NCBI GenBank assembly: GCA_947579605.1 | Contig: OX388314.1 | Coordinates: 7,316,001-7,380,000, forward strand | Direction of reading: 5' to 3' | Origin: Athripsodes cinereus | Lineage: Eukaryota > Arthropoda > Insecta > Trichoptera > Leptoceridae | Length of the DNA stretch: 64,000 nucleotides | Part shown: positions 7,461 through 33,655 of the stretch, piece after piece | Position numbering within the stretch: the first letter of the stretch is position 1 | Layout of the letters: each line of letters begins with the position of its first letter | Made by a program: the position numbers and the translations under genes | The notes under the pieces: model-generated | Seen by the model: only the letters and a program-made list of their open reading frames with translations | What the model was told of the DNA's origin: nothing | Database searches by the model: none

Positions 7461-10031
7461 TTAGGTCATTGTACTTTGAAACTTTTCTATATTGTTAAAT
7501 TTTGATTGGACACTTATCATACATTCTTGAGAAAACTGATAGGTTCTTCCAGTCATTGTTTTTGGGGGTTCCACCATAGCAATAATATGAGGAATGGGCA
7601 CAGCACATGCATCTTCCTTCTTGGGCCAAAAAAATGATGTTGATGGTCCGTGGGGATGTAGAAACTGTATAGTGACATCTTTTTCTTTAGCATTTACCTC
7701 ACTAACCATGCCAAAGTACCATAAGCTGTCATAAACACAAGCAATAAAGCACCCAGGGTTCAAATTTTCCAATTTCACAAGTAAATTTTGCTGCTTGTTA
7801 AATAAATTACAAATAATAGCTGCTTTTTCGTCCCTGCTAATTCTTCTAGCCTCAATTGTTCCCAAATCATTTAGTGGCTGAAAATTGTGAAATGATCTTG
7901 TCCCTGGAAGAGTTTGAACATCTTTGAAGCGACTTTCTAAAGCAGAACGAGTTAATTCAACCGCTTCTTTAGAAATAAAGTGGAAACTGATTTTTTCAAT
8001 TCTGGTCTTGCAAAAGTCAACCAGTTCAGTCACTGTTATTATTTGTTTTTCCAGGGGTCGTTGAAGACTTTCCCTCCGAGCTTAGCGCTTCACAGTACCC
8101 CCTATTCCATCACATTCTGTTTTGCCATGGCTGGTTGCAAAAAATGACCACTGAGCTTTAAGTTGAAAATCTTTCTCATGCAGACAGAGGTTTATGAAGT
8201 TGTATTTATTTTTATACTGGGCAGCACACCCATCACTAAAGTAATGAATCTCTTTAATGTGTGGGTGATTCTCTTTCAAAAAGGCCGTCACAGTTTTTTG
8301 TATTTCATACACCATACTTACATCATGTTTGAGGTCATCAGATATGATGCAAAGAGGTAGAACAAGTTTTTGGTCAGTTGCATTCTTGCAGTGAATGATT
8401 ACAGGATGAATAGTGCATGAATCTGAAGTCCAATGGTAACCTTGGGCTTCTTCTTGTATTGTGAAAGCATAATTTTCACTGAAGTCCATTGAGATGACAG
8501 CAATGTTAGAAGAAGCTGTTTCCTTTAAACTTTTAAAAGTTGATGCTTGTGATTTGGCAATGTAAGAATGAGGTATTAATTTGTTTAGTTTTTCAACTAA
8601 TGTTTCAATAAATTCATCAACAGAGCTTGAACACCGTATCATTTCAGTTCGATCTGTGGAAACCCACTGGCTGTACTCAATAACGTCTTCATCATCATAG
8701 TTCTGAAACTTTAACTGTAAAAAGTGGACAAGGTTATCTTTGGATGGACATTTGTCACAATGCCTTAACATACATTCTCTCGTTGCTCCTACACAAACCA
8801 TGTGCAATATAAGTTCTTTGTAATCCTCCTCTATACCGGCTCCATAAATCAATAAATTGACATTCTGGTGGATTGTGCATACACATACTAAGTGTGTGCC
8901 GCTAGCACCAGCCAAAATGCACCACTTAGGTCTCAAAGTGCAGAATTTTGAAAAACCTATTTTCAAATGAGGATACTCCCATTTAAAACTTGAGTATAGC
9001 TCACGAAGATTACACAAAATCAAACGCTTTCTCTCATAAACTTTTTTTTCTATACTCACTACATCCTTCATCCCCGGTAAAATTCTACAGTGTTCATCAC
9101 TTTGATAAAAGTTTTTCACCAATTCAATATTTTCAAGGCTTAGCTTTTTCCCTAGCCCAGGATCTGGTTCTCCTAAAAACCCCTTGTCTTTGAACACTTG
9201 TTGAGCCTTACGAACAGAATAATCAGATGTCTTAAAAGTTTCTTTTATTTTTTTTCTTGACCACATCAGAGAAGCTGGTATTGTCAATATTTGGATCTGT
9301 TTACTTCTTGATGCACCTATCATTCCATTTTTAATTATGTCCACTAGTTTATCCATGTCTTCACTTTTTTGCAATAACACACTTTTTTCCGAGTCATTTT
9401 TATCTTCTGGCAAATCAACTTCAAGAACAGTTAGAATTTTTGCTTTTACTTTTTCATTAACTCTCTGTAGCTTTTCTTTACCATAAGATGATTTGCTATG
9501 CTCACGAAGTGCATGTAATTTTATTGGTGAACATCCAATTTCATGAAAGGAAGCATTTAGTTCGTCAATTGCAGTTTTTTTTTGCAATTGGTGTACTTCA
9601 TCTAAACTTAATCCTATATCTTCAGTTTCTACATTCTGACTCTCATCAATAACTTCATCAGTTTGTTTAACTTTAAAAAGCTCTTTCCTGCAAAATGAGC
9701 AAAGTTTTTGACCCGGTTTTACCTTGTACCCTTTTGATAAGATGATTCTACTCTGTTCTGAAGTTACAACACGAAGTGTTTTTTTAATAGAATTTTTATG
9801 TTTTTGAAAAGGATCACAACATACCTTTTGTAAAAATTCATACTTGTTTAAAAACACATTTTGATGGTGAAGACAAACAGTGTTCAATATGTTAGATTCC
9901 GTTCTTAATCTCAAAAGATTCAAATATTTTTCAGAAAGTTTATCAATACTTTGTATAGATTTTTTCTTGACATAGTTTAACAGATGACAATCACTTTGAG
10001 TAGTTTCCCCCACACTGCACTTTTCCTCCAT
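7461..10031 (-). pseudogene. Transposase of the 4.3-kb element, one in-frame stop
   Basis: A 649-codon ORF (ATG at 10031) ends in TAA at 8084-8082, and the same frame then continues for 206 codons to 7461, so the original gene encoded about 856 residues. The stop falls directly after the conserved stretch HGKTECDGIGGTVKR; one base change from a sense codon (for example TTA) would explain it. Recognisable features are a Cys cluster CSFCRKELF near residue 112, the SDGCAAQYKNKYNF motif before FFATSHGK, and a C-terminal part with PGTRSFHNF and PGCFIACVYDSLWYFG. These motifs are familiar from many unnamed transposase-like proteins of insects and cnidarians. Which residues form the catalytic triad is not clear to me. 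Full-length protein cannot be made from this copy without readthrough. Confidence 0.85.
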
Positions 10032-10357
10032 TGTTCAACAAAAAATACCACCAATAAACTTATTTTTAAAAAATAATTATTATGTTACTTTATAATTAGT
10101 TTGAAAATACATAAAAAAACAACACTATTAATAACATCTATTAACTAAAAATATTGCTACATATAAGCACCAATCATGCACCTTACACTGGCAATAGCCT
10201 AAGACTGACTGACAAATAGAAGCCAGACTTTGCTTGCTAGACAGACTCACTTGTTGAAACATGAGAGTTTCATGTCTCAACGTGACAGTTTGCTTCCAGC
10301 AGCAGAGTGTGCAGTCTGAGGTTCTTGTTACAACTTGAATAGTTCAATTGCATAGCT

Positions 10358-17234: not shown

Positions 17235-20200
17235 TTACACGGTGTCATCTGAAACAAAACATAAGGATTATAAAACATTTAGATCATCAAAACATACAGA
17301 TTAAAACTCATGAAATGCCATCAAATCATAGTTATTGTAAGCAAAATATGAGTAATGGAAAATTGATGAAATTTTCAAGGACTTGAAACGAACCAAAAAA
17401 TATTTTTTGAACTATTTTAAGATTACATGAAAAAAAGTTGCACTATGGTTGATACAGTCAGCAGTCATATTCAATTAAGAATTCTGATAACTGATACAAT
17501 TTTATTAAATGTCGACATATTACTACTACTACTACTACTATACCATCACGGCATATCCCACAAGTGGGGTAGCCAGCAGACCAGCTGCATATAAAACATG
17601 CAAGCTGTCTTCTCCGTGCCAATATAAAATCAAGACATTCAGGATGGGTGGCAAACCTCATCGCTGAATTTAAGATGTAAAATGTCTTAATTTTTTCTAA
17701 CACCTGCCTTTTTTAGGACTCGCGAAAACTTACGGAGAAGATATTAACAATTTTATAAACAAGAAATATCTATAAAAAGGCAATATTCAACTTATCTTTG
17801 TAAAAATACTGACCCAACTTTTTTTGTGAGCCCTTCATTTATTTCTAACTAATATTGCTGGATAAAAAAAATAATGTTGAAATAAGCAGTTTTGAAAGTG
17901 TCAGATGGTCCATATTTCAGATGCAATGATGAAAATATTTAATATTATTGTAAATTTGCTTACCGTGAAACCACCAATTAGTTTTCTTGGGATTTTTATT
18001 ACATGTCTTGACATAAAAGGCATCGTCAGCAGGACGTTTCTGGAAAGATGGAACAATAAAAAATATAGCAAAAGTCTACAGTAAATGAATTATAATTAAA
18101 TTATTTAAATACTATGAAAACACTGTTTTTGCTTCACTAAAAGTATACAATATACAAAATGACAGGCGCGTGCCTTCCATAATGCAAATATGCAACGCTT
18201 GCCCTAAAATAAATAAATAAATCTTCAAAATGACATACTTTAGCAGTTAGAAATTCATAAATAATGATATTCTACACTACTTTATTACACAATTTTTAAG
18301 ATTATACATTTTTGGTTAGCTGGAAGATATTGCCTCCAGGCAATAAGTTCGCCAATTGCTCATGATTTTTTTTTCTGATCAATAAAGTGTTCTTATTATT
18401 ATTTATTGTAAGGCATGCGTTGCATATTTGCATGTATGGAAAGCACGCTGCTGCAAAACGCCTACCACTTTCATCACCAAATTGGGATCTTCAGGGCTGA
18501 TTATTAAATAAAATTATATGTTAAACAGAATGTTATCAAAAGAATTAAACATCAGAAAAGAAAAAAGTTGAAGGAATCACAAGATTATCAAATATACTCA
18601 TAAATTCTAGTGAGAAAACATTGAACTTTTATTGCAAGTAGATAATATAGTATTTACCTTTTTCTTGCAACTACTGAGCATGGATACAATGGATAAGCAA
18701 ACGGATCTAACACAGAGAGCCGGAGACCAATCATCTGTGAGGATGGAGAGGCAGATATGTCCATTGGAGTAGATGTGAGGGTGGACAGGAATGTTACTGC
18801 CGATAAACACCACCTGAAAGATGAAAAAAAATATTATATGACGTGTATTTACATAAGCACTTTTTGGTAGAAAAAATGGAACAGTAAAGAATATTTCCAT
18901 ATCTATTGACACTTGATCACAACATGTTTTTTTCGACACTTTAATATTGAGGATAGGCAGTGGATATGAATGCTTAATTTTGGGTCCTAAATAGCTATTA
19001 ACGGGTCCTAATTGTGGAGGATAACTTATATATTGACACTGTAATATTATAAACAGAATGTCAGTCAGTAAGTTGGACGCATAAAATTGTAGAAGCAATA
19101 ACCCTGATTTTCGGCACTTAACTATTGTTGAATTTGATTCTCAATATCTTTGTGTTTCTTTAAAATATATATTAATAAACAAAATATTATATATTCTTTA
19201 CTCATCACTATAGTGATTACAAGCAATTAGATACAAAAACACAATGAATATTAGTAGCACATTTGGCTAAAAATGATTGATAATGAAGTGATACATACCT
19301 CGGGTGAGTCAAATGGATATTTGTGAGTGAACTTGAACTGTAATTGAAACTTCTCTCCCTCATACAGGGTCCCCTCCACTCCCTCCAGGTGAACTATCCA
19401 TCTGAAAAATATCAACAATACAATTATCGTCTATATTCTCAAAATAATAAACACATTATCACATCAAAGTCCAGCAAGGCTGTGTGTTGACACTATTAAT
19501 TTTTAACACTATCTCTCAGCAGAAGAGTGAAGCATATGTGGGAGTACTGCACGATCTTGAATATACAGATAACTTAGCCCTGTTTGATACATCTGTGGAT
19601 GCATTACAGTGCAACACCAATGTTCTTAATAAAAATTCATTACCCCTTGGCCTTCGAATCAATGCAGGTAAGACAGAGTATATCTGTAACGCAACGAGTA
19701 CTGACACCCCACTATTAGTTGGGAATACCCAAATATCTCAGATCAGTAAGTTTAAATATCTTGGAAAAACTATAAAGCCAGAAGGCGATCTCCGATTGAA
19801 TGTACCACCCATAGAAGCTGTCAGCAAAGTTTTCAATAACATGGACAGAATTTGGAGGGCGTCTGGACTCAGTGTCAGGACGGAATACCGCCTGTTCAAT
19901 GCTTTATTATCCCAATCCTTCTATATGGCTGTGAGTCTTAATAATATACATTGGTCCTATGAAAACGGCATCAGACCACTAGAAATGTCTTGGAAAGAAG
20001 TAAAACGATTGGCGAAAAGACACTATGAATGGAGGAGACCGGTTTTTACCCTGTGCTCCCGATAAGAGCGTTCAGGAATGAGAATATTAGAATTAGCGGA
20101 TGCGAGAGGAATGTCGTGGATAAAAGAGGGTAGAAAGTAAAGTAGAGTAGAGTAGTAGTATAAAGTAGAGTCTCGGCCTTCAGAACAGGGGGTCGGTGGT

Positions 20201-22718
20201 TCGATCCCAGGTGCCGTCAAACTCCCCTTTCACGGCACAAGCTTTTAGCTTAGTGTGAAAGGTGTATAAGGTTGTATTTGGGTTTATAACAAAACCCAGA
20301 TATATCTTTTATAAAAAATAAAAAAAAATGCGTATAAATAAGTTGTGATGGTTTAGACATGTGGAGTGAATGGATGATGAAGAGGATGTGTATAAAAGCA
20401 GATGAGGGTATAGTTTAGCTCCAATAAGTCACAATAAATGTACTAGACTTTCAACCTTTAGATATGAGATTTAAATCTCAATACTATGTGTCCACCTTCA
20501 CAAAATATGTTATAGAGGAGACATTAGAAATATCTTTGTCGTGGTTACTCCTGTCTAGTTGAATTTGCTTTTATGTACTTTTTTATGTCTATTATATATT
20601 TATTTACATGTAAAAGGCTGACGCCGCCGTATATTGGAATAAAATGAAATAAATAAAAATAAAATAAATAATATTGGGGCATCTCAAATCATCAAATCCT
20701 CTGATTATTAATTTGTTTTACCTTCATGATTAAGTTTATCAGTTGATGCGAAGTTACCTGGAGTAGAATTGGAATCATCACAAACTCAGATTAATGTATT
20801 ATAAAAATAGTCACTTACTGTGTCAGGTTCTGACTGGCCTGTTCTCCATCTACTGTCACACCTGGTGGAGGCTCTTTCATAAGAGTCATCAACTCTTTCT
20901 GTAACCGTTTCTGTAACAACATTATACCAAATTATTTATACAATACTGACACTTCAAGACTTATTTGGAATGGCTCGAGATCTTGGAAGCAGTAATAATG
21001 ATAGGGATCACAGGAGGAAGTGCAAAGGCGCAACGGCCCTCCCACCCAACTAAGATCCGGGGGAGAGAATGTATGTATGTATGATTACACTTTTATGTTA
21101 TCTAAAATATAATGCAACAGTCAATAAACTCATAATTGGTTGGACAGTTTAAAGAAAAAGAAAATTAAGAGTGTTTACACTGGAACCCTTTGAAGACAAG
21201 TGAATTGAATAATATTATCCTTCCCAATGATTGATTATTACATGATGTAGGAATGGTGTGGGGTCTAATTTATTTAAACATTCATAATAATATTCTAGAA
21301 AGAATAATAGGGGAGTAATAATATATAAATAGCTGAATATTAATTATTTATTTTTAGCAGCCATTACTCGCTAGCTTATATATAAGAAAATATATGACAT
21401 GTTTGATTGAATTGTTTACTCTACATCATGTTATGTTATGTATACATTAATAAAATGTATCATGATGTTTTCCAACAAACCTGCATATACATATTTGTAT
21501 ATTGAAAAAAAAAATACATTATATTGAGAATTTTCATTTTTAATTATGGCAATGACATAAGTTTTTTCAACATACATCATCACACTTATTTCTAACATTT
21601 ATGTTGACACAACATTACTGTGTTACTCAAAGACGATTGTGAGTCATTACTATTGACTATTGCCGAAACTTATATCAAGTTTAATCAGCAGTTTTGTTTT
21701 GATAAATATTTTTAACTATAGATATTGTAAAATATAAGGCATTTTTAAAATATGCGATTATGGCATCCAAAACAACATTAAGAGAATTACAATACTATAT
21801 TCATATCTCAATTCGACAAAAAATCAACACAGTGTAGTATCCAACACACAGATTTTTATTTGACAGCCAGATTCCATCATTGTAGATTATCATCATTATA
21901 CATTAAATTGAGGTAAATTGTTTCTGTTGACCATAGCCTTGTATAACGAACAGTAGTAAAGTAGTATTTCCCCAAAAATAAGTGATATTTAATTGAGTGC
22001 AACAGGCACTGAACTGTACAAGGATTGTAATACACATACATATGTTATTGATTACACACTTGTAACAAATCAATGTGTTATTCATATAGACACTAGAATA
22101 TTTTATTACACTTATTAATTCATATCCACAAATCATTTAACAGCAACTGCAGTGTACAAATAAGCCATATTAATAAAATACAGAGATAAAACTGAGTGTT
22201 AAACAAAGCTTATTTTTAAATTAAACTATTGCTGTGATAGGATATTTATACACGTAAACAAACATTGGCAGATTATTCGTGTGTATAATTAGTTATGTCA
22301 CAACTACATAAGTAGTACAAGAACCAACAATTGCGAATGATTGAATACGTCTATCATTTATAACAATTTACAATGCATATGTCCAGGTGTTGGCTCCGAA
22401 GAATGTTGTTAAATCACATTATTCAGTTTCGTAAAATGGAATTCAAACATTGACCACTAGTTCAGAAACCCGTTAGAAAACATTCGAGATAACATTAATT
22501 TTATAACAGGATTATCGTATCACTAATTCTTAATCACATCAAGATCGATTGGGATGATTTCGTTATAATCAAATTACATGCCTAAAAAATAAGCCAAAAA
22601 CATTGAAGCTAATATTTACCGATAAAACATTTCTACAAATGTCGATTTGCATCCAAAAATATATTCAAAATAAAGAAAAAAAATATTATTTCAGTACCTC
22701 AGCTGGAGACGCGGCCAT
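17235..22718 (-). CDS. Ube2w: Ubiquitin-conjugating enzyme E2 W
   Basis: UBE2W is the E2 that transfers ubiquitin to the alpha-amino group of substrate N-termini, often priming them for other E3/E2 pairs. Six coding exons were read: 22698-22718 (MAASPAE), 20819-20910, 19299-19401, 18658-18813, 17964-18039 and 17235-17248. All introns are GT-AG and the phases close exactly, giving 153 residues (human is about 151). The sequence runs KRLQKELMTLMKEPPPG, W-IVHLEGVEGTLYEGEKF, YPFDSPE, then IPVHPHIYSNGHICLSIL with the catalytic Cys at residue 93, LSSCKKKKRPADDAFYV and NPKKTNWWFHDDTV. HPH in place of the usual E2 HPN and the flexible C-terminal tail after WW are UBE2W traits. The last exon holds only 14 coding bases. 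Introns carry several transposon fragments but coding exons are intact. Confidence 0.93.
17521..17740 (-). repeat. SINE-like repeat, copy 3 (in Ube2w last intron)
   Basis: (ACT)n followed by TATACCATCACGGCATATCC and a nearly full body through ACACCTGCCTTTTTTAGGAC and CGAAAACTTACGGAGAAG. Lies in the intron 17249-17963. Confidence 0.85.
18167..18455. mobile_element. Putative MITE in a Ube2w intron
   Basis: Two ~40-bp arms face each other: GCGTGCCTTCCATAATGCAA with ATATGCAACGC on the left, and the reverse complement of TTGCATATTTGCATGTATGG with AAAGCACGC on the right. About 200 bp of AT-rich sequence separates them. No clear target duplication. Confidence 0.5.
19462..20120 (+). mobile_element. 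LINE reverse-transcriptase fragment in a Ube2w intron
   Basis: The plus reading contains QQGCVLTLLIFN, YTDNLALFD (a mutated form of the YADD catalytic box), GLRINAGKTEYI, FKYLGKTIKPEG and MDRIWRASGLSVRTEYRLFN, in the order seen in RT domains of LINEs such as RTE/CR1 relatives. It ends at a stop at 20063-20065, followed by a second partial copy of the MSWxxE-type tail (RGMSWIKEGRK). The Asp of the second YADD position is Asn and the N-terminal half is missing, so it is dead. Inserted in the intron 19402-20818 in antisense to Ube2w. Confidence 0.75.
20158..20325 (+). mobile_element. tRNA-derived SINE, copy A
   Basis: Contains a polymerase III B-box-like GGTTCGATCCC (about 20197-20207) and the body TTTTAGCTTAGTGTGAAAGG and GTATTTGGGTTTATAACAAA, ending in an A-rich tail. 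The same body occurs in reverse at 33478 and 63108. Confidence 0.7.
20337..20410 (+). mobile_element. LINE 3' ORF fragment
   Basis: Reads WFRHVE, stop, MDDEEDVYKS: a decayed version of the WFGHVERxxDERMTKRMY segment intact at 41098-41328. It is a 3' fragment of the same or a related LINE family. Confidence 0.55.
20965..21085 (+). mobile_element. LINE 3' end with (GTAT)n tail
   Basis: GGCTCGAGATCTTGGAAGCA, GATCACAGGAGGAAGTGCAA and GGCCCTCCCACCCAACTAAG end in GTATGTATGTATG. GC content contrasts with the surrounding intron, and the layout is that of a truncated LINE tail. Confidence 0.5.
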
Positions 22719-24276: not shown

Positions 24277-24614
24277 TGTAACGTAAATCGTTTTTCTATA
24301 ACTTGTGTCAGGGAAAATAAAGTCTGAATTCAATTAAAAGAATGACATCTTGAAAATTAACAATTTATTTAAAATACATATTACAACAACTATTATTTAT
24401 ATATACGTCACATATTATTACAGTTCACACAGATTTCTTATATACCCATTATATAACATCCTTCTTCCAGCCTATCTAGATCTTTCTTTTTTATCAAAAC
24501 CAAAACAACCACCTGTCATTATTTTCCAAACATTCCATAACCAAAAATAATATAAAAATTCAAATTCATTAAACTTCCAAACTTAAGTACCCTCCTAATG
24601 GTGATTACGTAACA
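24277..24614 (-). repeat. 3' LTR
   Basis: 338 bp, identical by eye to 30059-30396. Contains AATAAA on the plus strand only; starts TGTAACGTAAATCG and ends GATTACGTAACA, giving the usual TG...CA ends on both strands. Confidence 0.96.
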
Positions 24615-24627
24615 TTGCCTCCCTCTT
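24615..24627 (-). other. Polypurine tract
   Basis: On the element's strand AAGAGGGAGGCAA lies directly before the 3' LTR, the position where plus-strand DNA synthesis is primed. Confidence 0.75.
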
Positions 24628-24630
24628 AAT

Positions 24631-27600
24631 TTAGTTCGTCCCGAACGAATTCTCTGGATGAAGATAGGAGCATCCTGAATCCTCTCTGCAATGTGAAGTC
24701 TTGAAGAAATAACAAGGTACAGACTTCTTGATGTTCTCACTATACCCTGGATTAAAACAACAAACTAAAACATTAATTCCAGTATTACAGAAGATCTCTT
24801 CTATCATATTTCGAACAACTTTCCAATCCATACTGCCACTTATCCTTGGTATGCCGAGCTTCGTAAGATTCATTTGTAACATTTGATCCCGCAAACTTTG
24901 TAAACAGTGCCACATCTGAACATACTCTGTTTGTTCTTCAGGGATTGCTTTATTTACCATGTAAAATATATGTCGTTCCCCATGCTGTAGATGGACCGCT
25001 TCTCCAATTTTCAAACTCTTGGCCTTAATCTCTTCCAATATCCCGTACTTCTTCTTGAAAACTTTGGCTATGCCATTAGTAAATTTTGCATTCTGAGCCA
25101 AGCAATGAGCCAAAACATAATCCTCTGGAGTGTCAAAAAGATCTTGCTCAACTTCGATAGTGACACCATGATGAATTCTTCGTTGAGGCGTCTTCATAAA
25201 CTCTACAAAACTCTTCTCTTTACTTAGGACTTTACAGACTTGAACAATCGGGTTGTTTCCTTCACTTTTATTGTCTCCTAAAAACGGTGCTAAGCGATTG
25301 AAATGTACCACCCTCGGCTTGCCATTTGATTTTCGTCGTATTCGATAAATAACGTCATTTATTCTTTTAATCACCTCGTACGGTCCTTCCCAGGATTTTT
25401 GAAGCTTCGGTGAATAGCCTCGTCTCCGTTGAGGATTGAACAACCAAACTAAATCTCCAGCTTGATACCTTCCTTCCACAGCTTTGACATCATATCTTTC
25501 CTTCATCCTGTCACTAGCGACTTGAATATTAGCCCGCACACGTTCATGGATGTCGTTCATCTTTCTCCGAAGTTCCGATACATAATCTTCTCCAACAAGA
25601 TCCTCTCCAGGCTTAGATCCATACTGCAAGTCGCAAGGTAACCGTAGTTCACGGCCAAAAATCACACTCGCTGGTGTTTGTCCCGTTGTCTCATGAATTG
25701 CCGAACGATAGGCCAATAAGAACAAGTGGATGTATTCGTCCCAATCCTTCTGATGATCAGACACCGCCTTCGACAGATATTTTCCACATGTTCGATTCAT
25801 TCGCTCCACCATTCCATCCGACTGTGGATGCAAAGCAGTTGTTCTCGTTTTTCGAATTCCCAATATCTCACATACTTGCTGAAATACGGCTGACTCAAAA
25901 TTTCTTCCTTGATCCGAATGAAGCTCCAACGGTACTCCAAAACGACTTATCAGCTCTCTTACCAAGATTTCAGCAACAGTGGTAGCCTCTTGATTTGGTA
26001 ATGCATAGGCTTCTGTCCATTTACTAAAATAGTCCATTGCTACTAAAATATACTTGTTCCCTCTTTCAGTTGTGGGAAACGGTCCTGCTATGTCGATGGC
26101 TATTCTTTCAAATGGACTACCTACATTGTACTGTCTCATTGGCGCACGCCTCTGTTTTTGAGGTCCGTTCGAAGTAGCACAAGTCACACATCTTCTACAC
26201 CAATCTTTTACATCTTCAGTGTAACGGACCCAATAAAATCTCTGACGAATCTTTTCTGTAGTCTTTTTAACTCCCAAGTGTCCACCAGACACATCATCGT
26301 GAAGCAGCTTAAGGACATCAGGAACTCTCTTCCTTGGAACCAATAGCTGTTGTTTCTGCTGTGTTCCATCTTCACTTTCCAGAATACGTTTCAACAACCC
26401 GTTTTCCACAACTATGGATTGCCATTGTGCCCAATATGATTTAACATTTGGTGAACATGAAGCTATTTCTTCCCATGAAGGTTTTCGATCATTTTCTTTC
26501 CACTGCATCAAAAGTCCAAGGTCAGGATCTTCCAACTGGTGCGCTCGAATTTCATCATCTTGCCAAAAATTATCGATGACTGTAGTTCTACGAATCATGA
26601 CGAACCTTTCCTCCGCTTTATTACAATGCTGGCAATCCTCTGGACATGGACGCCTTGACAGTGCATCAGCATTTTTATGACGAAGTCCAGCTCGATGCTC
26701 AGAATCATAGTCATATTCTTGCAATCTTTCTATCCATCTTGCAACCTGACCTTCAGGATTCTTGAATCGTAACAGCCATACAAGCGCCGAATGATCTGTC
26801 CTTAAAAGAAATTTCCGTCCATATAGGTATTTGCGGAAGTGCTCAACTGACTTGATTACAGCAAGTAACTCTCTTCGCGTTACACAATAATTGCGTTCCG
26901 GCCTTGACAAAACTTTACTGAAGTACGCAATTACGCGTTCTTGACCATCCTGAACCTGAGATAGTACACTTCCAATGCCGACGTTGCTTGCATCCGTATC
27001 CAGAATAAAATTCCCTTCAGCTCGAGGATAACTTAGAATCGGGGAATTAATCAATACCTTCTTCAATTCTTCAAACGCGCATTGGCATTTTGAATCCCAT
27101 ATAAATTCATTACTTTCTTCTGTGAGTTTTGTCAATGGTTTAGCGATATCAGCGAAGCCCAAAACAAATCGCCGATAGTAAGTGCTTAAGCCTAAAAAGC
27201 TTCTTACTTCATGCTTGTCTTTAGGTGTAGGCCAGTCTTGAACAGCTCTAATCTTCTCAGGATCCACCGCCACTCCTTCCTCAGAGACAACATGACCCAG
27301 ATAGTTGACTTGTCTTCGGAACAATGTACATTTCTTAACATTGAGTTTCAAGTTGGCCGCTCTCAATCGTGAAAACACTTGTTCCAAATTTCGTAAGTGC
27401 TCCTCAAAACATTTTCCAAGCACGATGATGTCATCCAGGTACACTAAACAGGTCTCCCACGACAATCCTCTCAGCACGCTTTCCATTAAACGCTCAAAAG
27501 TAGCCGGAGCGTTACAAAGTCCAAACGGCATAACAATGAACTGCCATAATCCACTTCCAATAGAGAATGCTGTTTTCTCTCTATCCTTAGGTTCCAGTCC

Positions 27601-28866
27601 AACCTGCCAATATCCACTCTTCAAATCCAACGTTGAAAAGATTTTACAGCCAGCCAATGTGTCCAACGTATCATCAATACGAGGCAAAGGGTAACTGTCC
27701 TTCTTAGTAACATTATTAAGTTGGCGAAAATCAACACAGAACCGAGTTGAGCCATCCTTCTTCCTAACCAGTACTACAGGTGAACACCATGGACTGCTTG
27801 ACGGTTCTATTACCTTGTCCCGTTCCATATCTTGAATAATTTGATCTGCTTCCGCCCGTTTTGCTAAAGGTAATCTTCTGGGTACTTGACGAATGGGTCT
27901 TGCATCACCTGTGTCTATTCGATGACTAACAACACTTGTTCTTCCTTTGGGTTGACTTGAGTTCTCGAAGACATCCTGATTTCTAGCGATGAAGGATCTA
28001 ATCTGTTTGCTCTGTTCCTTGGTAAGTTCCTTACAAGCCTCCTTCACTAAGTCGTCAAGGTGTTTTGGTACCTCCTCTGAAGAAACTTGGCCACCGCTCA
28101 CTCTACATGTTACTGACGAAACCGATGAACACATACTTAAATAAACTCCTTCTTTGATAGTCACTGGATAGTCATTGATATTCATTAGCCTGACCAAAAT
28201 ATCCTTTTTAGCTTGAATCAGGACTCTCGCAATCAACACTCCTTTTCCAGCTTCAGTATTAGCGTTGGACTCCACTACTAAAACATGTCCATTTGGAATG
28301 TCACAATCTAAGTAGGCTCGTACTAACATTTCACTTTGTTTTGGAATAGTAACAACTTCTGCCGCAAGCACACGTGTAGCGAATTCTTCATGCTCTTGTA
28401 CAAGAATATCTTCATCCCCAATTTTCAGAGTTCGCCTCTTCAGATCCAGTTTGAATCCATACTTCGCCATTACATCCATTCCAAGAATAACTTCCTCCTC
28501 TATCTCAGCCACCAACACCTGATGATCGAAGATGGTGCTTCCAATGTGAAAGTTGGCAACTGTCTCACCGCATACAGACGCCGACTCTCCAGTTGCCGTC
28601 CGTAATGTCCATTTAGTTGATTTTATTTGTTTTTTTTCGCAAACTAAATCAGGTCTCATGATTGTCCTTGTTGCTCCAGTGTCCAACAAAAGTTTCAAAT
28701 TCTTTCCATTTACTTTGCCATTTATAAACATGCTGCTGACTTGTCCGCTGAACGACGCAACAACTGCATATCTCTTCGAGGCATTGGCAATGCGGGTCGA
28801 TAGTTGCCCCTTTCCATCAACCCTTTTTAGTTTTCCTGAATCTGCTGTTCGTTTTTCCTTGGACAC
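24631..28866 (-). CDS. pol: Gypsy Pol polyprotein with C-terminal TARG1-like macro domain and CCCH zinc finger
   Basis: The 1411-codon frame holds an aspartic protease (LLLDTG at residues 59-64), reverse transcriptase (YLDD at 476-479), RNase H (D623, E666, D691), and an integrase with the HHCC zinc motif (H856, H863, C890, C893) and DDE triad (D925, D985, E1021), then a GPYEV segment of GPY/F type. After this, where Gypsy Pol normally ends, residues ~1235-1370 resemble TARG1/OARD1 macro domains: QDLFDTPEDYVLAHCLAQN, NGIAKVFKKKYG, GIPRISGSMDWKVVRNMIEE. The positions of the human catalytic K84 and D125 correspond to K1306 and D1347. Residues 1385-1403 form C-x7-C-x5-C-x3-H. The first codon of the open frame is GTG and a stop lies just upstream, so Pol is probably made by -1 frameshifting from gag, with which it overlaps by 40 bases. 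Confidence 0.95.
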   Translation of the reverse strand: MSKEKRTADSGKLKRVDGKGQLSTRIANASKRYAVVASFSGQVSSMFINGKVNGKNLKLLLDTGATRTIMRPDLVCEKKQIKSTKWTLRTATGESASVCGETVANFHIGSTIFDHQVLVAEIEEEVILGMDVMAKYGFKLDLKRRTLKIGDEDILVQEHEEFATRVLAAEVVTIPKQSEMLVRAYLDCDIPNGHVLVVESNANTEAGKGVLIARVLIQAKKDILVRLMNINDYPVTIKEGVYLSMCSSVSSVTCRVSGGQVSSEEVPKHLDDLVKEACKELTKEQSKQIRSFIARNQDVFENSSQPKGRTSVVSHRIDTGDARPIRQVPRRLPLAKRAEADQIIQDMERDKVIEPSSSPWCSPVVLVRKKDGSTRFCVDFRQLNNVTKKDSYPLPRIDDTLDTLAGCKIFSTLDLKSGYWQVGLEPKDREKTAFSIGSGLWQFIVMPFGLCNAPATFERLMESVLRGLSWETCLVYLDDIIVLGKCFEEHLRNLEQVFSRLRAANLKLNVKKCTLFRRQVNYLGHVVSEEGVAVDPEKIRAVQDWPTPKDKHEVRSFLGLSTYYRRFVLGFADIAKPLTKLTEESNEFIWDSKCQCAFEELKKVLINSPILSYPRAEGNFILDTDASNVGIGSVLSQVQDGQERVIAYFSKVLSRPERNYCVTRRELLAVIKSVEHFRKYLYGRKFLLRTDHSALVWLLRFKNPEGQVARWIERLQEYDYDSEHRAGLRHKNADALSRRPCPEDCQHCNKAEERFVMIRRTTVIDNFWQDDEIRAHQLEDPDLGLLMQWKENDRKPSWEEIASCSPNVKSYWAQWQSIVVENGLLKRILESEDGTQQKQQLLVPRKRVPDVLKLLHDDVSGGHLGVKKTTEKIRQRFYWVRYTEDVKDWCRRCVTCATSNGPQKQRRAPMRQYNVGSPFERIAIDIAGPFPTTERGNKYILVAMDYFSKWTEAYALPNQEATTVAEILVRELISRFGVPLELHSDQGRNFESAVFQQVCEILGIRKTRTTALHPQSDGMVERMNRTCGKYLSKAVSDHQKDWDEYIHLFLLAYRSAIHETTGQTPASVIFGRELRLPCDLQYGSKPGEDLVGEDYVSELRRKMNDIHERVRANIQVASDRMKERYDVKAVEGRYQAGDLVWLFNPQRRRGYSPKLQKSWEGPYEVIKRINDVIYRIRRKSNGKPRVVHFNRLAPFLGDNKSEGNNPIVQVCKVLSKEKSFVEFMKTPQRRIHHGVTIEVEQDLFDTPEDYVLAHCLAQNAKFTNGIAKVFKKKYGILEEIKAKSLKIGEAVHLQHGERHIFYMVNKAIPEEQTEYVQMWHCLQSLRDQMLQMNLTKLGIPRISGSMDWKVVRNMIEEIFCNTGINVLVCCFNPGYSENIKKSVPCYFFKTSHCREDSGCSYLHPENSFGTN
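24658..24714 (-). other. CCCH zinc finger at the Pol C-terminus
   Basis: CYFFKTSHCREDSGCSYLH gives C-x7-C-x5-C-x3-H, a spacing used by RNA-binding CCCH fingers. It lies ten residues before the Pol stop, after the macro domain. Confidence 0.7.
24757..25164 (-). other. TARG1/OARD1-like macro domain within Pol
   Basis: Pol residues about 1235-1370. Family knowledge: TARG1 removes ADP-ribose from acidic residues and deacylates O-acyl-ADP-ribose through a Lys/Asp pair. Both residues appear retained in IFYMVNK (K1306) and PRISGSMD (D1347). The Gly before the Asp in human PRIGCGLD is Ser here, and the loop after HC differs, so activity is an inference. Confidence 0.8.
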
Positions 28867-29990
28867 CGATTACGCAGGTGTCCAATTTGTCCACAGTCCC
28901 AGCAACGTAGTTGTCTCTTCTTTCCTTTCAAGGCCTCCAAAACCTTCTTAACTATGTCTTCTATTGAAAGTGGTTGATTTTCTTGTACAGCTTCCATCAC
29001 ACGGGCTTGAGCGTGACCTCGTACGGATTGTCTTACAGCTTCAAATTCGAGTGCTTGGGTTAAAGCATCACTAAGAGTTTGTGGTCTAGCCAGTTTTATA
29101 GCTTGTTGTGTCTCACTTGCTCGTAGTCCATCCAAAAACTTGTCTACTGCAAGACTTTCACATACATCATCAGAAACTGTAGGGTATGCATATCTCACTA
29201 GACGCGCTACATCCGCCTCGAATTCCTGTAGAGTTTCATTGGGCCTCTGCACACGATTCTTCAACTGTGACCTATAAACTTGTTCCATATGCTTATGTCC
29301 AAATCGCATCTCCAGTCTCTCAACCAAAGATTTAAAGTTTTGTCTATCCGCAAGCGGAATCATCTGAAGGACTCTTAAAGCATCTCCTCGTAAAGATATA
29401 CTCAATACTGATGCTTTTCTTGTCATCGACCAGCCATTTATCATAGCTACTGTTTCGAACAAAGTTAAGTACTCTTCCCAAGAGTTCTTTCCATCAAAAG
29501 TTGGCATATCACTACGCACATGCTCCACCATTGAAGTTGCACCACTCTCTACACACTTGAACTCTGTGTCCACCGTTGTGTTCTGCTCAAAATCCGTTCT
29601 TGCTGTTGAAGAAAGCGCCTGATTCTCCAAAACTTTCACCTGCTTTGTTAACTCGCTAATCCTTTCATCAAAGGACACAGAATATTCTTGAAACTTCCTT
29701 TCAATTTCTTCTTTCGTTCCTCTAGAATCTTCTCGAAGCCTTTCTATTTCTTCTTTCATAGCTGTAGCATTTTCTTGAAGCTTCTTTTCGATTTCTTTAT
29801 AAAGCTCACTGGTGGTTATAGGCAACTCGAAGATATATGTTTCCGGATCTTCACCTGCTTCTTCCATCACCTTTCTTAGTCGAAGTTGGAGCACACCCTT
29901 CGTTCCAGATGTATCCGCGTCTCTTTCTTCTAGTTCGCGCTTCAGATCCACCACTTTCAAGTCAAGTAGAGTTAATTTTTTTGATGACAT
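28827..29990 (-). CDS. gag: Gypsy Gag with N-terminal SAP-like domain and zinc knuckle
   Basis: 387 residues from an ATG at 29990, about 70 bases downstream of the 5' LTR. Residues ~6-46 (LTLLDLKVVDLKRELEERD, then GTKGVLQLRLRKVMEE) resemble a SAP DNA-binding helix pair. Residues ~55-120 are heptad-like and charged, probably coiled coil. The central part (FDGKNSWEEYLTLFETVA, LRGDALRVLQMIP, ETLQEFEADVARLV) is the retrotransposon Gag fold. Near 363-376 CWDCGQIGHLRNRC is a CCHC knuckle for RNA packaging. Ends by overlapping pol. Confidence 0.93.
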   Translation of the reverse strand: MSSKKLTLLDLKVVDLKRELEERDADTSGTKGVLQLRLRKVMEEAGEDPETYIFELPITTSELYKEIEKKLQENATAMKEEIERLREDSRGTKEEIERKFQEYSVSFDERISELTKQVKVLENQALSSTARTDFEQNTTVDTEFKCVESGATSMVEHVRSDMPTFDGKNSWEEYLTLFETVAMINGWSMTRKASVLSISLRGDALRVLQMIPLADRQNFKSLVERLEMRFGHKHMEQVYRSQLKNRVQRPNETLQEFEADVARLVRYAYPTVSDDVCESLAVDKFLDGLRASETQQAIKLARPQTLSDALTQALEFEAVRQSVRGHAQARVMEAVQENQPLSIEDIVKKVLEALKGKKRQLRCWDCGQIGHLRNRCPRKNEQQIQEN

Positions 29991-30040
29991 ATTTTACACA
30001 GTCTTTATTTCCACTAAGCACTTAAATATCTGATTCACAA

Positions 30041-30057
30041 CCCCACACCTGACACCA
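30041..30057 (-). other. Primer-binding site
   Basis: TGGTGTCAGGTGTGGGG begins one base after the 5' LTR on the element's strand. It is the complement of a tRNA 3' end ending ...CTGACACCA, which suggests tRNA-Leu as primer. Confidence 0.7.
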
Positions 30058-30058
30058 A

Positions 30059-30396
30059 TGTAACGTAAATCGTTTTTCTATAACTTGTGTCAGGGAAAAT
30101 AAAGTCTGAATTCAATTAAAAGAATGACATCTTGAAAATTAACAATTTATTTAAAATACATATTACAACAACTATTATTTATATATACGTCACATATTAT
30201 TACAGTTCACACAGATTTCTTATATACCCATTATATAACATCCTTCTTCCAGCCTATCTAGATCTTTCTTTTTTATCAAAACCAAAACAACCACCTGTCA
30301 TTATTTTCCAAACATTCCATAACCAAAAATAATATAAAAATTCAAATTCATTAAACTTCCAAACTTAAGTACCCTCCTAATGGTGATTACGTAACA
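30059..30396 (-). repeat. 5' LTR
   Basis: 338 bp, matching 24277-24614 without a difference that I can see. Carries the promoter of the element. Confidence 0.96.
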
Positions 30397-32409: not shown

Positions 32410-33477
32410 AACATTGATATATTTTTGTTTATATTATTTTTATAAAAAAAATATATTTGTACAGTAATATTGTTGGTTGAGATATAAAGAAAATAAATTC
32501 TTATCAAATAATAAAAGTATACAACACATAACACATACAAGGTAAATATCTAAACTATACAGTATTACAAGTCTCGTGTGATCTTTAAATTTGTGAATCA
32601 TATCCATTATTGTCATAAGATTTTTTTTTATATTTCAGTATAACCTAAATCCAACATAACATGTCAATTGAAAACATTTAAATCCTTTATATTTAATAGT
32701 TATTATTTAATCTTGAAGTTGTTCTGTGAACTTCATAAAATTATCACCCTTTATCATGTCATTTAATCACCTAGCCTGATGATGAGAGCAAAAGCTCTAG
32801 AAAGCCAGCTCGCAACCAATTGAAGTTACAGTGGAAGTATTAAATAAGTGTTTTATTTATAATAAATTAACATGAGCTTTCACCAAGAACTGTCGGCCGA
32901 AAATATAAACTTCACAATTCGTACTTTGATTTTACATATATCTACTAGGTATGTTTTTATATTTCTTTGTTGTGAATTCTTATCAGATTGGCTTGGTAAT
33001 ACTGATATCATTTATATATTTACCACATAAACATATACAATAATAAAAATAAGATACTTAATGATGTATAATTACTGTATTCTATTTTAATTTATTATTT
33101 CTAGAAGTGAATACTGTTGGGTGACCTAGATAATAGTTGCTCTTTATTATCTTACTGTCTCAGTCTTAAGTTTTTTTTTCTATCTTCTGTATGGAAATAT
33201 AATATTACAACAAGTCTGTGTTTGCTATTTTAATTAAGTTATTGATTCCAATTTAAAAACAAATCAAGAATATTTATAAAGAATTTTCTTGGTATTTATT
33301 TTGTAAAACTTCATATCTGTTTATAACAAAAATGAATGCCCAAAATGTAATGTCGAATCTGCAAAATTGTCATTTTACGGGAGAACCAAATAAAAGGAGA
33401 TAAATGCATAGTTTCAGTATTCGTAATAAAGAATTACAAAACTACAATGAAATGGTGTTTTTATGAAGTTTTTTTTT
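32410..33477. other. AT-rich intergenic sequence with a hammerhead-like motif
   Basis: No gene. CCTGATGATGAGAGCAAAAG at about 32774 followed by CTCTAGAAAGCC is discussed in the findings. The rest is AT-rich. Confidence 0.4.
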
Positions 33478-33655
33478 TAAAAAGAGATATATCTGGGTTT
33501 TGTTATAAACCCAAATACAACCTTATACACCTTTCACATAAGCTAAAAGCTTGTGTCGTGAAAGGGGAGTTTGCCAGCACCTGGGATCGAACCGCAGACC
33601 CCTTGTTCACGAGGCCGAGACTCTACCTCCAGGCTACCGACGAACCCTGTTAGTT
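33478..33655 (-). mobile_element. tRNA-derived SINE, copy B (most complete)
   Basis: On the minus strand: GGGTTCGTCGGTAGCCTGGA (tRNA-like A-box region), GAGTCTCGGCCTCGTGAAC, CGGTTCGATCCCAGG (B-box), then CACAAGCTTTTAGCTTATGT and GTATTTGGGTTTATAACAAA. The head thus resembles a tRNA gene with internal polymerase III promoter, the body is family-specific. Confidence 0.8.

What the first reader, a model, noticed from the sequence alone, without database searches (positions are those of the whole stretch)
24658..25164. Gypsy retrotransposon Pol fused to a TARG1-like ADP-ribosyl-hydrolase macro domain and a CCCH zinc finger
Seen: after the integrase and GPY/F segment the Pol frame stays open for roughly 175 further residues (from about 1235), matching the order of TARG1/OARD1 motifs (DLF..P...LAHC, GIA..FKKK.G, PRI...D...V..MIEE) and ending in C-x7-C-x5-C-x3-H. 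The Lys and Asp aligned with human K84 and D125 are kept. Known: macro domains of several animal RNA viruses remove ADP-ribose placed by host PARPs. Inference: this element may have captured a host TARG1-like gene to counter PARP-based or RNA-based silencing, or to process its own modified proteins; the zinc finger could target RNA.
Basis: partly seen in the sequence, partly recalled or inferred. Interest (0 to 1): 0.88.

Follow-up and report, generated by a model that had tools for sequence, protein, structure and literature searches.

The report
Retrotransposon with an ADP-ribose-removing enzyme
A recently active Ty3/Gypsy retrotransposon in an animal genome carries, at the end of its polymerase-integrase protein, a domain closely resembling the cellular enzyme TARG1, which strips ADP-ribose from proteins and DNA, followed by a zinc finger; more distant domains of the same kind sit elsewhere in the polymerases of envelope-bearing elements in the same genome.

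The parts
24277..30396 (-). Whole LTR element, 6120 bp, inserted on the minus strand; flanked by a 4-bp ATAG repeat on both sides
   Evidence: LTR boundaries and flanks computed
30059..30396 (-). 5' LTR (338 bp), 100% identical to the other LTR
24277..24614 (-). 3' LTR (338 bp)
28827..29990 (-). gag ORF, 387 aa: SAP domain, Retrotrans_gag, zinc knuckle
24631..28866 (-). pol ORF, 1411 aa: aspartic protease, RT, RNase H, integrase (H2C2, rve, p58 C-terminal / SH3-type), then the extension
24754..25164 (-). TARG1/OARD1-like macro domain, Pol residues 1235-1371; catalytic-dyad equivalents K1306 and D1347
24658..24714 (-). CCCH-type zinc finger, C1385-x7-C1393-x5-C1399-x3-H1403
   Evidence: sequence; ligands kept in P0004 and P0048; Pfam zf-CCCH above cut-off only in P0004
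25165..25275 (-). linker between integrase tail and macro domain (Pol residues 1198-1234), the least conserved part (65% and 32% identity to the two relatives)

Best explanation
A Ty3/Gypsy LTR retrotransposon encodes, as the C-terminal part of Pol directly behind the integrase, a TARG1-type macro domain followed by a CCCH-type zinc finger. SHOWN: the domain is a real, conserved, open part of Pol in at least three related elements, has the TARG1 sequence signature and predicted fold, and keeps the Lys/Asp catalytic dyad. INFERRED: it is an active ADP-ribosyl hydrolase that stays attached to, or is cleaved from, integrase and so enters the particle and pre-integration complex. There it removes ADP-ribose put by host transferases on the element's proteins or nucleic acid, or on target chromatin, while the finger helps hold it on nucleic acid. 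This would protect reverse transcription or integration from ADP-ribosylation-based restriction or silencing. The domain was most likely acquired from a cellular TARG1/OARD1 gene, in an ancestor old enough to have split into lineages only 44% identical in this segment.
Against: No activity or expression was tested. The substrate loop differs from TARG1: window SGSMD-W and P0004 SDGMD-W lack three residues of TARG1's GCGLDRLQW, and loop residues differ; only P0048 keeps the full-length loop. Processing of the Pol tail and particle entry are assumed. The AF2 alignment was 40 of 43 OARD1-like sequences, so agreement with the TARG1 fold is partly built in; with two element sequences only, the model failed (pLDDT 40.7), and the finger region is low-confidence in both. 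Among 25 copies compared with the window over the 1500 bases upstream, codon changes were 97 non-synonymous to 34 synonymous against 1178 to 322 sites, close to neutral, so within-family variation gives no proof of selection. Monophyly of the three C-terminal domains is unresolved (support 18/8).
Confidence: 0.5

Rival explanations
1. Integrase targeting module: placed directly behind the integrase C-terminal domain, where chromoviruses carry a chromodomain (position recalled), the macro domain reads ADP-ribosylated chromatin or DNA ends and steers integration there; hydrolysis is secondary.
For: Position behind the SH3-type integrase C-terminus; macro domains are ADP-ribose binders (recalled; also stated in the abstract of PMC5087735, listing); the finger could add nucleic-acid contact.
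Against: Both catalytic residues are kept in 3 of 3 C-terminal-type elements, which pure reading would not need. The insertion-site pattern of the 119 copies was not analysed.
Confidence: 0.22
2. Inactive or structural use: the macro fold is kept as a scaffold or tether in the integrase/RT complex, with ADP-ribose chemistry lost or irrelevant.
For: In the internal-type domains between RNase H and integrase the Asp is not kept and Lys is Gln in one of four; the loop in the window element is shortened by three residues.
Against: The C-terminal type keeps the complete dyad. DarG keeps only the Lys, and SCO6735 with Gln at that place is still active (PMC9411070, passages), so even the internal type is not shown inactive.
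Confidence: 0.2
3. Incidental downstream sequence, an assembly chimera, or a passenger gene fragment without function.
For: None found beyond the absence of functional tests and the near-neutral variation among young copies.
Against: Same architecture in two diverged sequences from other sources; 119 copies spanning the segment in one genome; conserved finger ligands and dyad.
Confidence: 0.04

Closest known systems
TARG1/OARD1 (C6orf130), terminal ADP-ribose protein glycohydrolase
   Different: Fused to a retrotransposon Pol and followed by a CCCH-type finger; substrate loop changed and three residues shorter in the window element
DarG antitoxin macro domain (DNA-thymidine ADP-ribose hydrolase)
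   Different: DarG lacks the Asp of the dyad (PMC9411070, passages); bacterial toxin-antitoxin context
Macro-domain ORFs of fish epsilon-like endogenous retroviruses (Basta et al. 2009, as cited in PMC4977317, one passage)
   Same: A retroelement carrying a macro domain
   Different: Described there as an additional open reading frame in epsilon-like retroviruses, not a fusion to Ty3/Gypsy Pol with a finger; the original paper was not seen, so the subtype of macro domain is unknown to me
Viral macro domains (alphaviruses, rubella; TARG1-resembling ones in BFVD such as Kadipiro virus VP8)
   Same: Viral use of a macro domain; Kadipiro VP8 is the top BFVD match (29% identity)
Chromoviral Ty3/Gypsy integrases with a C-terminal chromodomain (recalled)
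   Same: An extra domain behind the integrase C-terminal domain
   Different: Chromodomain reads histone methylation; a macro domain binds or cleaves ADP-ribose

Membership tests
TARG1/OARD1 macro domain | Best match by sequence among solved structures is TARG1/OARD1 itself | tested here: met
TARG1/OARD1 macro domain | TARG1-type macro fold | tested here: met
   caveat: 40 of the 43 rows of the model's alignment were OARD1-like
TARG1/OARD1 macro domain | Lys84-Asp125 catalytic dyad | tested here: met
   K1306 and D1347; role of the dyad from PMC9411070 passages
TARG1/OARD1 macro domain | GCGLD substrate loop of full length | tested here: not met
   Window SGSMD and P0004 SDGMD, three residues shorter; P0048 keeps the length (ACGLDKLNW). 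Hence filed as a TARG1-like domain, not as TARG1 proper
TARG1/OARD1 macro domain | ADP-ribosyl hydrolase activity | not testable with these tools
   -
CCCH zinc finger | C-x7/8-C-x5-C-x3-H spacing, conserved | tested here: met
   3 of 3 sequences
CCCH zinc finger | Pfam score above cut-off | tested here: inconclusive
   Window below; P0004 above for zf-CCCH; P0048 below
Ty3/Gypsy LTR retrotransposon | LTRs with target-site duplication, gag, and pol order PR-RT-RH-IN | tested here: met
Errantivirus-like env-bearing elements | env ORF after pol | tested here: not met
   Window element: only 16 bases between pol stop and the 3' LTR. Met in internal-type elements: L031, L032, L034 and downstream of L055 and L057

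The most novel reading that the evidence does not exclude
ADP-ribosylation is a standing battleground between LTR retroelements and their animal hosts. TARG1-like erasers were acquired at least twice, at two different places in Ty3/Gypsy Pol: behind integrase with a CCCH finger in the window's lineage, and between RNase H and integrase in envelope-bearing errantivirus-like elements. They act on ADP-ribose adducts of the elements' own nucleic acid or of target chromatin.
Probability: 0.3. Interest if true: 0.9.

Novelty: new variant of a known kind. Interest (0 to 1): 0.76.

Why it matters
Virus macro domains that oppose host ADP-ribosylation are a well-known theme for RNA viruses (recalled). 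A TARG1-like domain built into the Pol of a young, high-copy retrotransposon, conserved in two diverged relatives, suggests that ADP-ribosylation matters for LTR retrotransposition in this host. That becomes directly testable by a single catalytic-residue mutation. The second, internal position in envelope-bearing elements suggests the trait is wider than one element, and offers a natural comparison between a dyad-keeping and a dyad-losing form.

Tried and rejected
Rejected: that Pfam silence means no macro domain; Pfam Macro does not report the window domain at E 1 or better, but direct comparison with TARG1 is strong.

Led nowhere: AF2 with only P0001 and P0004 (pLDDT 40.7). Protein search with Pol residues 1225-1411 at full Pol length found nothing at E 0.001 or better among 61 candidates. 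The search with the extension alone found 1 protein (P0004) among 9 candidates. Scans of viral contigs and genome contigs gave 0 relatives. Paper searches: ten. Four papers were opened, by term passages only: PMC4977317, PMC4695847, PMC9411070, PMC5087735. The other papers listed (four; two) were seen as listings only. Nothing seen describes a macro domain in Ty3/Gypsy or errantivirus Pol; only PMC4977317 mentions macro-domain ORFs in fish ERVs. Most subscription-journal papers and all bioRxiv preprints are not held, so absence from print is not shown.

Not achieved: the host genome's own OARD1 gene (pattern search) and a P0048 search of the host genome did not complete. The tree (25 vertebrate OARD1, 3 C-terminal, 4 internal) therefore cannot say who the donor was, nor whether the two positions are one capture or two; long branches meet there. 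Copy variation in the 30 best loci is biased, because they were the best-scoring rows, all 100% identical in protein to the window; macro segment: 26 of 30 with no DNA change, 4 of 30 with one synonymous change, 0 non-synonymous. For the upstream sum, L002, L009, L017 and L029 (unlike upstream sequence) and L020 (the window copy) were dropped, leaving 25 of 30. In one search, 7 of 10 internal-type loci gave the complete RNase H-to-integrase segment without stops; in L032 and L033 the end motif was not found, and L059 printed no segment (its frame skips from the protease region to the macro region). In one search three internal segments (L031, L055, L057) were compared with the fetched proteins; L034 was missed by the search pattern. 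An earlier count said 27 and 3 of 30 for the macro segment; the right numbers are 26 and 4. Absence of other families from the VIA list says nothing about them.

Full report
What is there. The window holds a complete-looking Ty3/Gypsy LTR element on the minus strand at 24277-30396. The 338-bp LTRs are identical and an ATAG repeat flanks both sides (repeat finder showed 300 of these bases). gag (28827-29990, 387 aa) has a SAP domain, a Retrotrans_gag domain and a zinc knuckle. pol (24631-28866, 1411 aa) has protease, RT, RNase H, the integrase zinc-binding domain and core, and an integrase C-terminal domain. Only 16 bases separate the pol stop from the 3' LTR, so there is no env.

It is conserved, not incidental. 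A protein search with the extension found one relative (P0004, from a 990-bp contig; 73% identity over 98%). It aligns with Pol from the integrase tail to the finger. A search with a profile including an OARD1 fragment gave 893 hits among 2620 candidates, of which 120 were listed. Among those 120, P0048 (410 aa; 44% identity over 98% of the extension) carries integrase C-terminal domains, the macro domain and the finger in one frame. Against P0048, identity is 67-76% in the integrase C-terminus, 32% in the linker, 46% in the macro domain and 45% in the finger. The macro and finger are better kept than the linker that joins them to integrase, and all four finger ligands and both catalytic residues are kept in 3 of 3. 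P0048 also keeps a TARG1-length loop (ACGLDKLNW), whereas the window (SGSMDW) and P0004 (SDGMDW) lack three residues there. P0048 therefore looks closer to the ancestral state (inference).

Copies in the host genome. The window lies in a 716-Mb assembly of 160 contigs, unnamed. The extension matched 145 places (150 of 165 candidates scored, so a lower bound; the list includes fragments and a few distant matches). Of these, 119, window included, cover all 177 residues, and in 1 of the 119 there is a stop. Of the 119, 73 lie in open frames of at least 1400 aa; 48 of 119 have a frame of 1775-1788 aa, long enough to include gag, and 18 have the window's 1412-codon form. In 6 copies compared with the window at the gag-pol junction (3 of each form), the two forms differ by 23 bases of length: two coexisting layouts. 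The 30 best copies had 0 non-synonymous changes in the macro segment, but they were selected for exactly that. Upstream changes in 25 of them (97 non-synonymous, 34 synonymous codons) are close to neutral, so young copies say little about selection.

A second position for the same kind of domain. The same searches returned distant matches (23-26% identity) in frames without stops (20 of the 150 rows). Ten loci were fetched. In the 7 that gave a complete segment, an uninterrupted OARD1-like region lies between the end of RNase H and the integrase zinc-binding domain. A profile of 4 of them hits TARG1 in the PDB at E about 1e-16, and one alone (L055) at 9e-11. Envelope frames of the Baculo_F type follow pol in L031, L032 and L034 and downstream of L055 and L057 (in the L055 copy split over two frames). 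The Asp of the dyad is not kept; the Lys is kept in 3 of 4 and is Gln in L034. Between L055 and L057 the domain evolves with dN/dS about 0.24 (macro codons, dS about 0.97). Four more distant pairs give 0.31-0.54 at less reliable divergence, and two near-identical pairs 0 and 0.13. So this domain too is under constraint. The tree separates internal, C-terminal and vertebrate OARD1 domains, but the joins are long-branched and the C-terminal group itself is weakly supported (18/8). One or two captures cannot be told apart.

How it most likely works. The safest inference is from the active site: the C-terminal type keeps the dyad reported as needed for TARG1's chemistry, so an active hydrolase is more likely than a mere scaffold. 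Its place on Pol would bring it into the particle and, if it stays on integrase, to the pre-integration complex. There it could clear ADP-ribose from the element's proteins, from nucleic acid (TARG1 and DarG act on ADP-ribosylated DNA; PMC9411070 passage) or from chromatin. ADP-ribosylation is reported in silencing of L1 (SIRT6 and KAP1, PMC4695847 passage). The main rival is an integrase targeting module, comparable in position to the chromodomain of chromoviruses (recalled). Neither was tested here.

What is known. Fish epsilon-like endogenous retroviruses are reported to carry macro-domain ORFs occasionally (PMC4977317, one passage, citing Basta et al. 2009, not seen). Viral macro domains are widespread, and several proteins in BFVD match the model well, Kadipiro virus VP8 first. 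In ten searches of the open-licence library nothing seen describes a macro domain in Ty3/Gypsy or errantivirus Pol; this does not show that no such paper exists. I therefore call it a new variant of a known kind (a retroelement with an acquired macro domain), with two features I have not found described: fusion behind integrase with a CCCH finger, and a related domain at an internal position in envelope-bearing elements.

Noticed in passing
L031, L034, L055-L058, L060 (G000 loci; segments): OARD1-like macro domain between RNase H and integrase of env-bearing Gypsy (errantivirus-like) families in the same genome, dyad Asp not kept, dN/dS about 0.24 between two families.
   Followed up: partly
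28827-29990 (-): Gag begins with a SAP domain (Pfam E 1.8e-6), a DNA-binding module unusual to me in a Gypsy Gag.
   Followed up: no
about 28827-28866 (-), and L061-L066: Two forms of the gag-pol junction coexist in the family: copies with one continuous frame of 1775-1788 aa (48 of 119) and copies with the window's 1412-codon pol frame, where gag lies in another, overlapping frame (18 of 119); the six copies compared differ by 23 bases of length between the forms.
   Followed up: partly
7461-10034 (-): Two long adjacent frames (206 and 650 aa) without any Pfam match at E 0.001, possibly an uncharacterised mobile element.
   Followed up: no
20165-20323 and 33469-33626: Inverted repeats (88 and 70 nt, 90-94% complementary) about 13 kb apart bracket the region holding the element.
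   Followed up: no
BFVD match list: Kadipiro virus VP8 and an RdRp-bearing protein of a thrips flavi-like virus contain regions matching the TARG1-like model better than the alphavirus macro domains listed.
   Followed up: no
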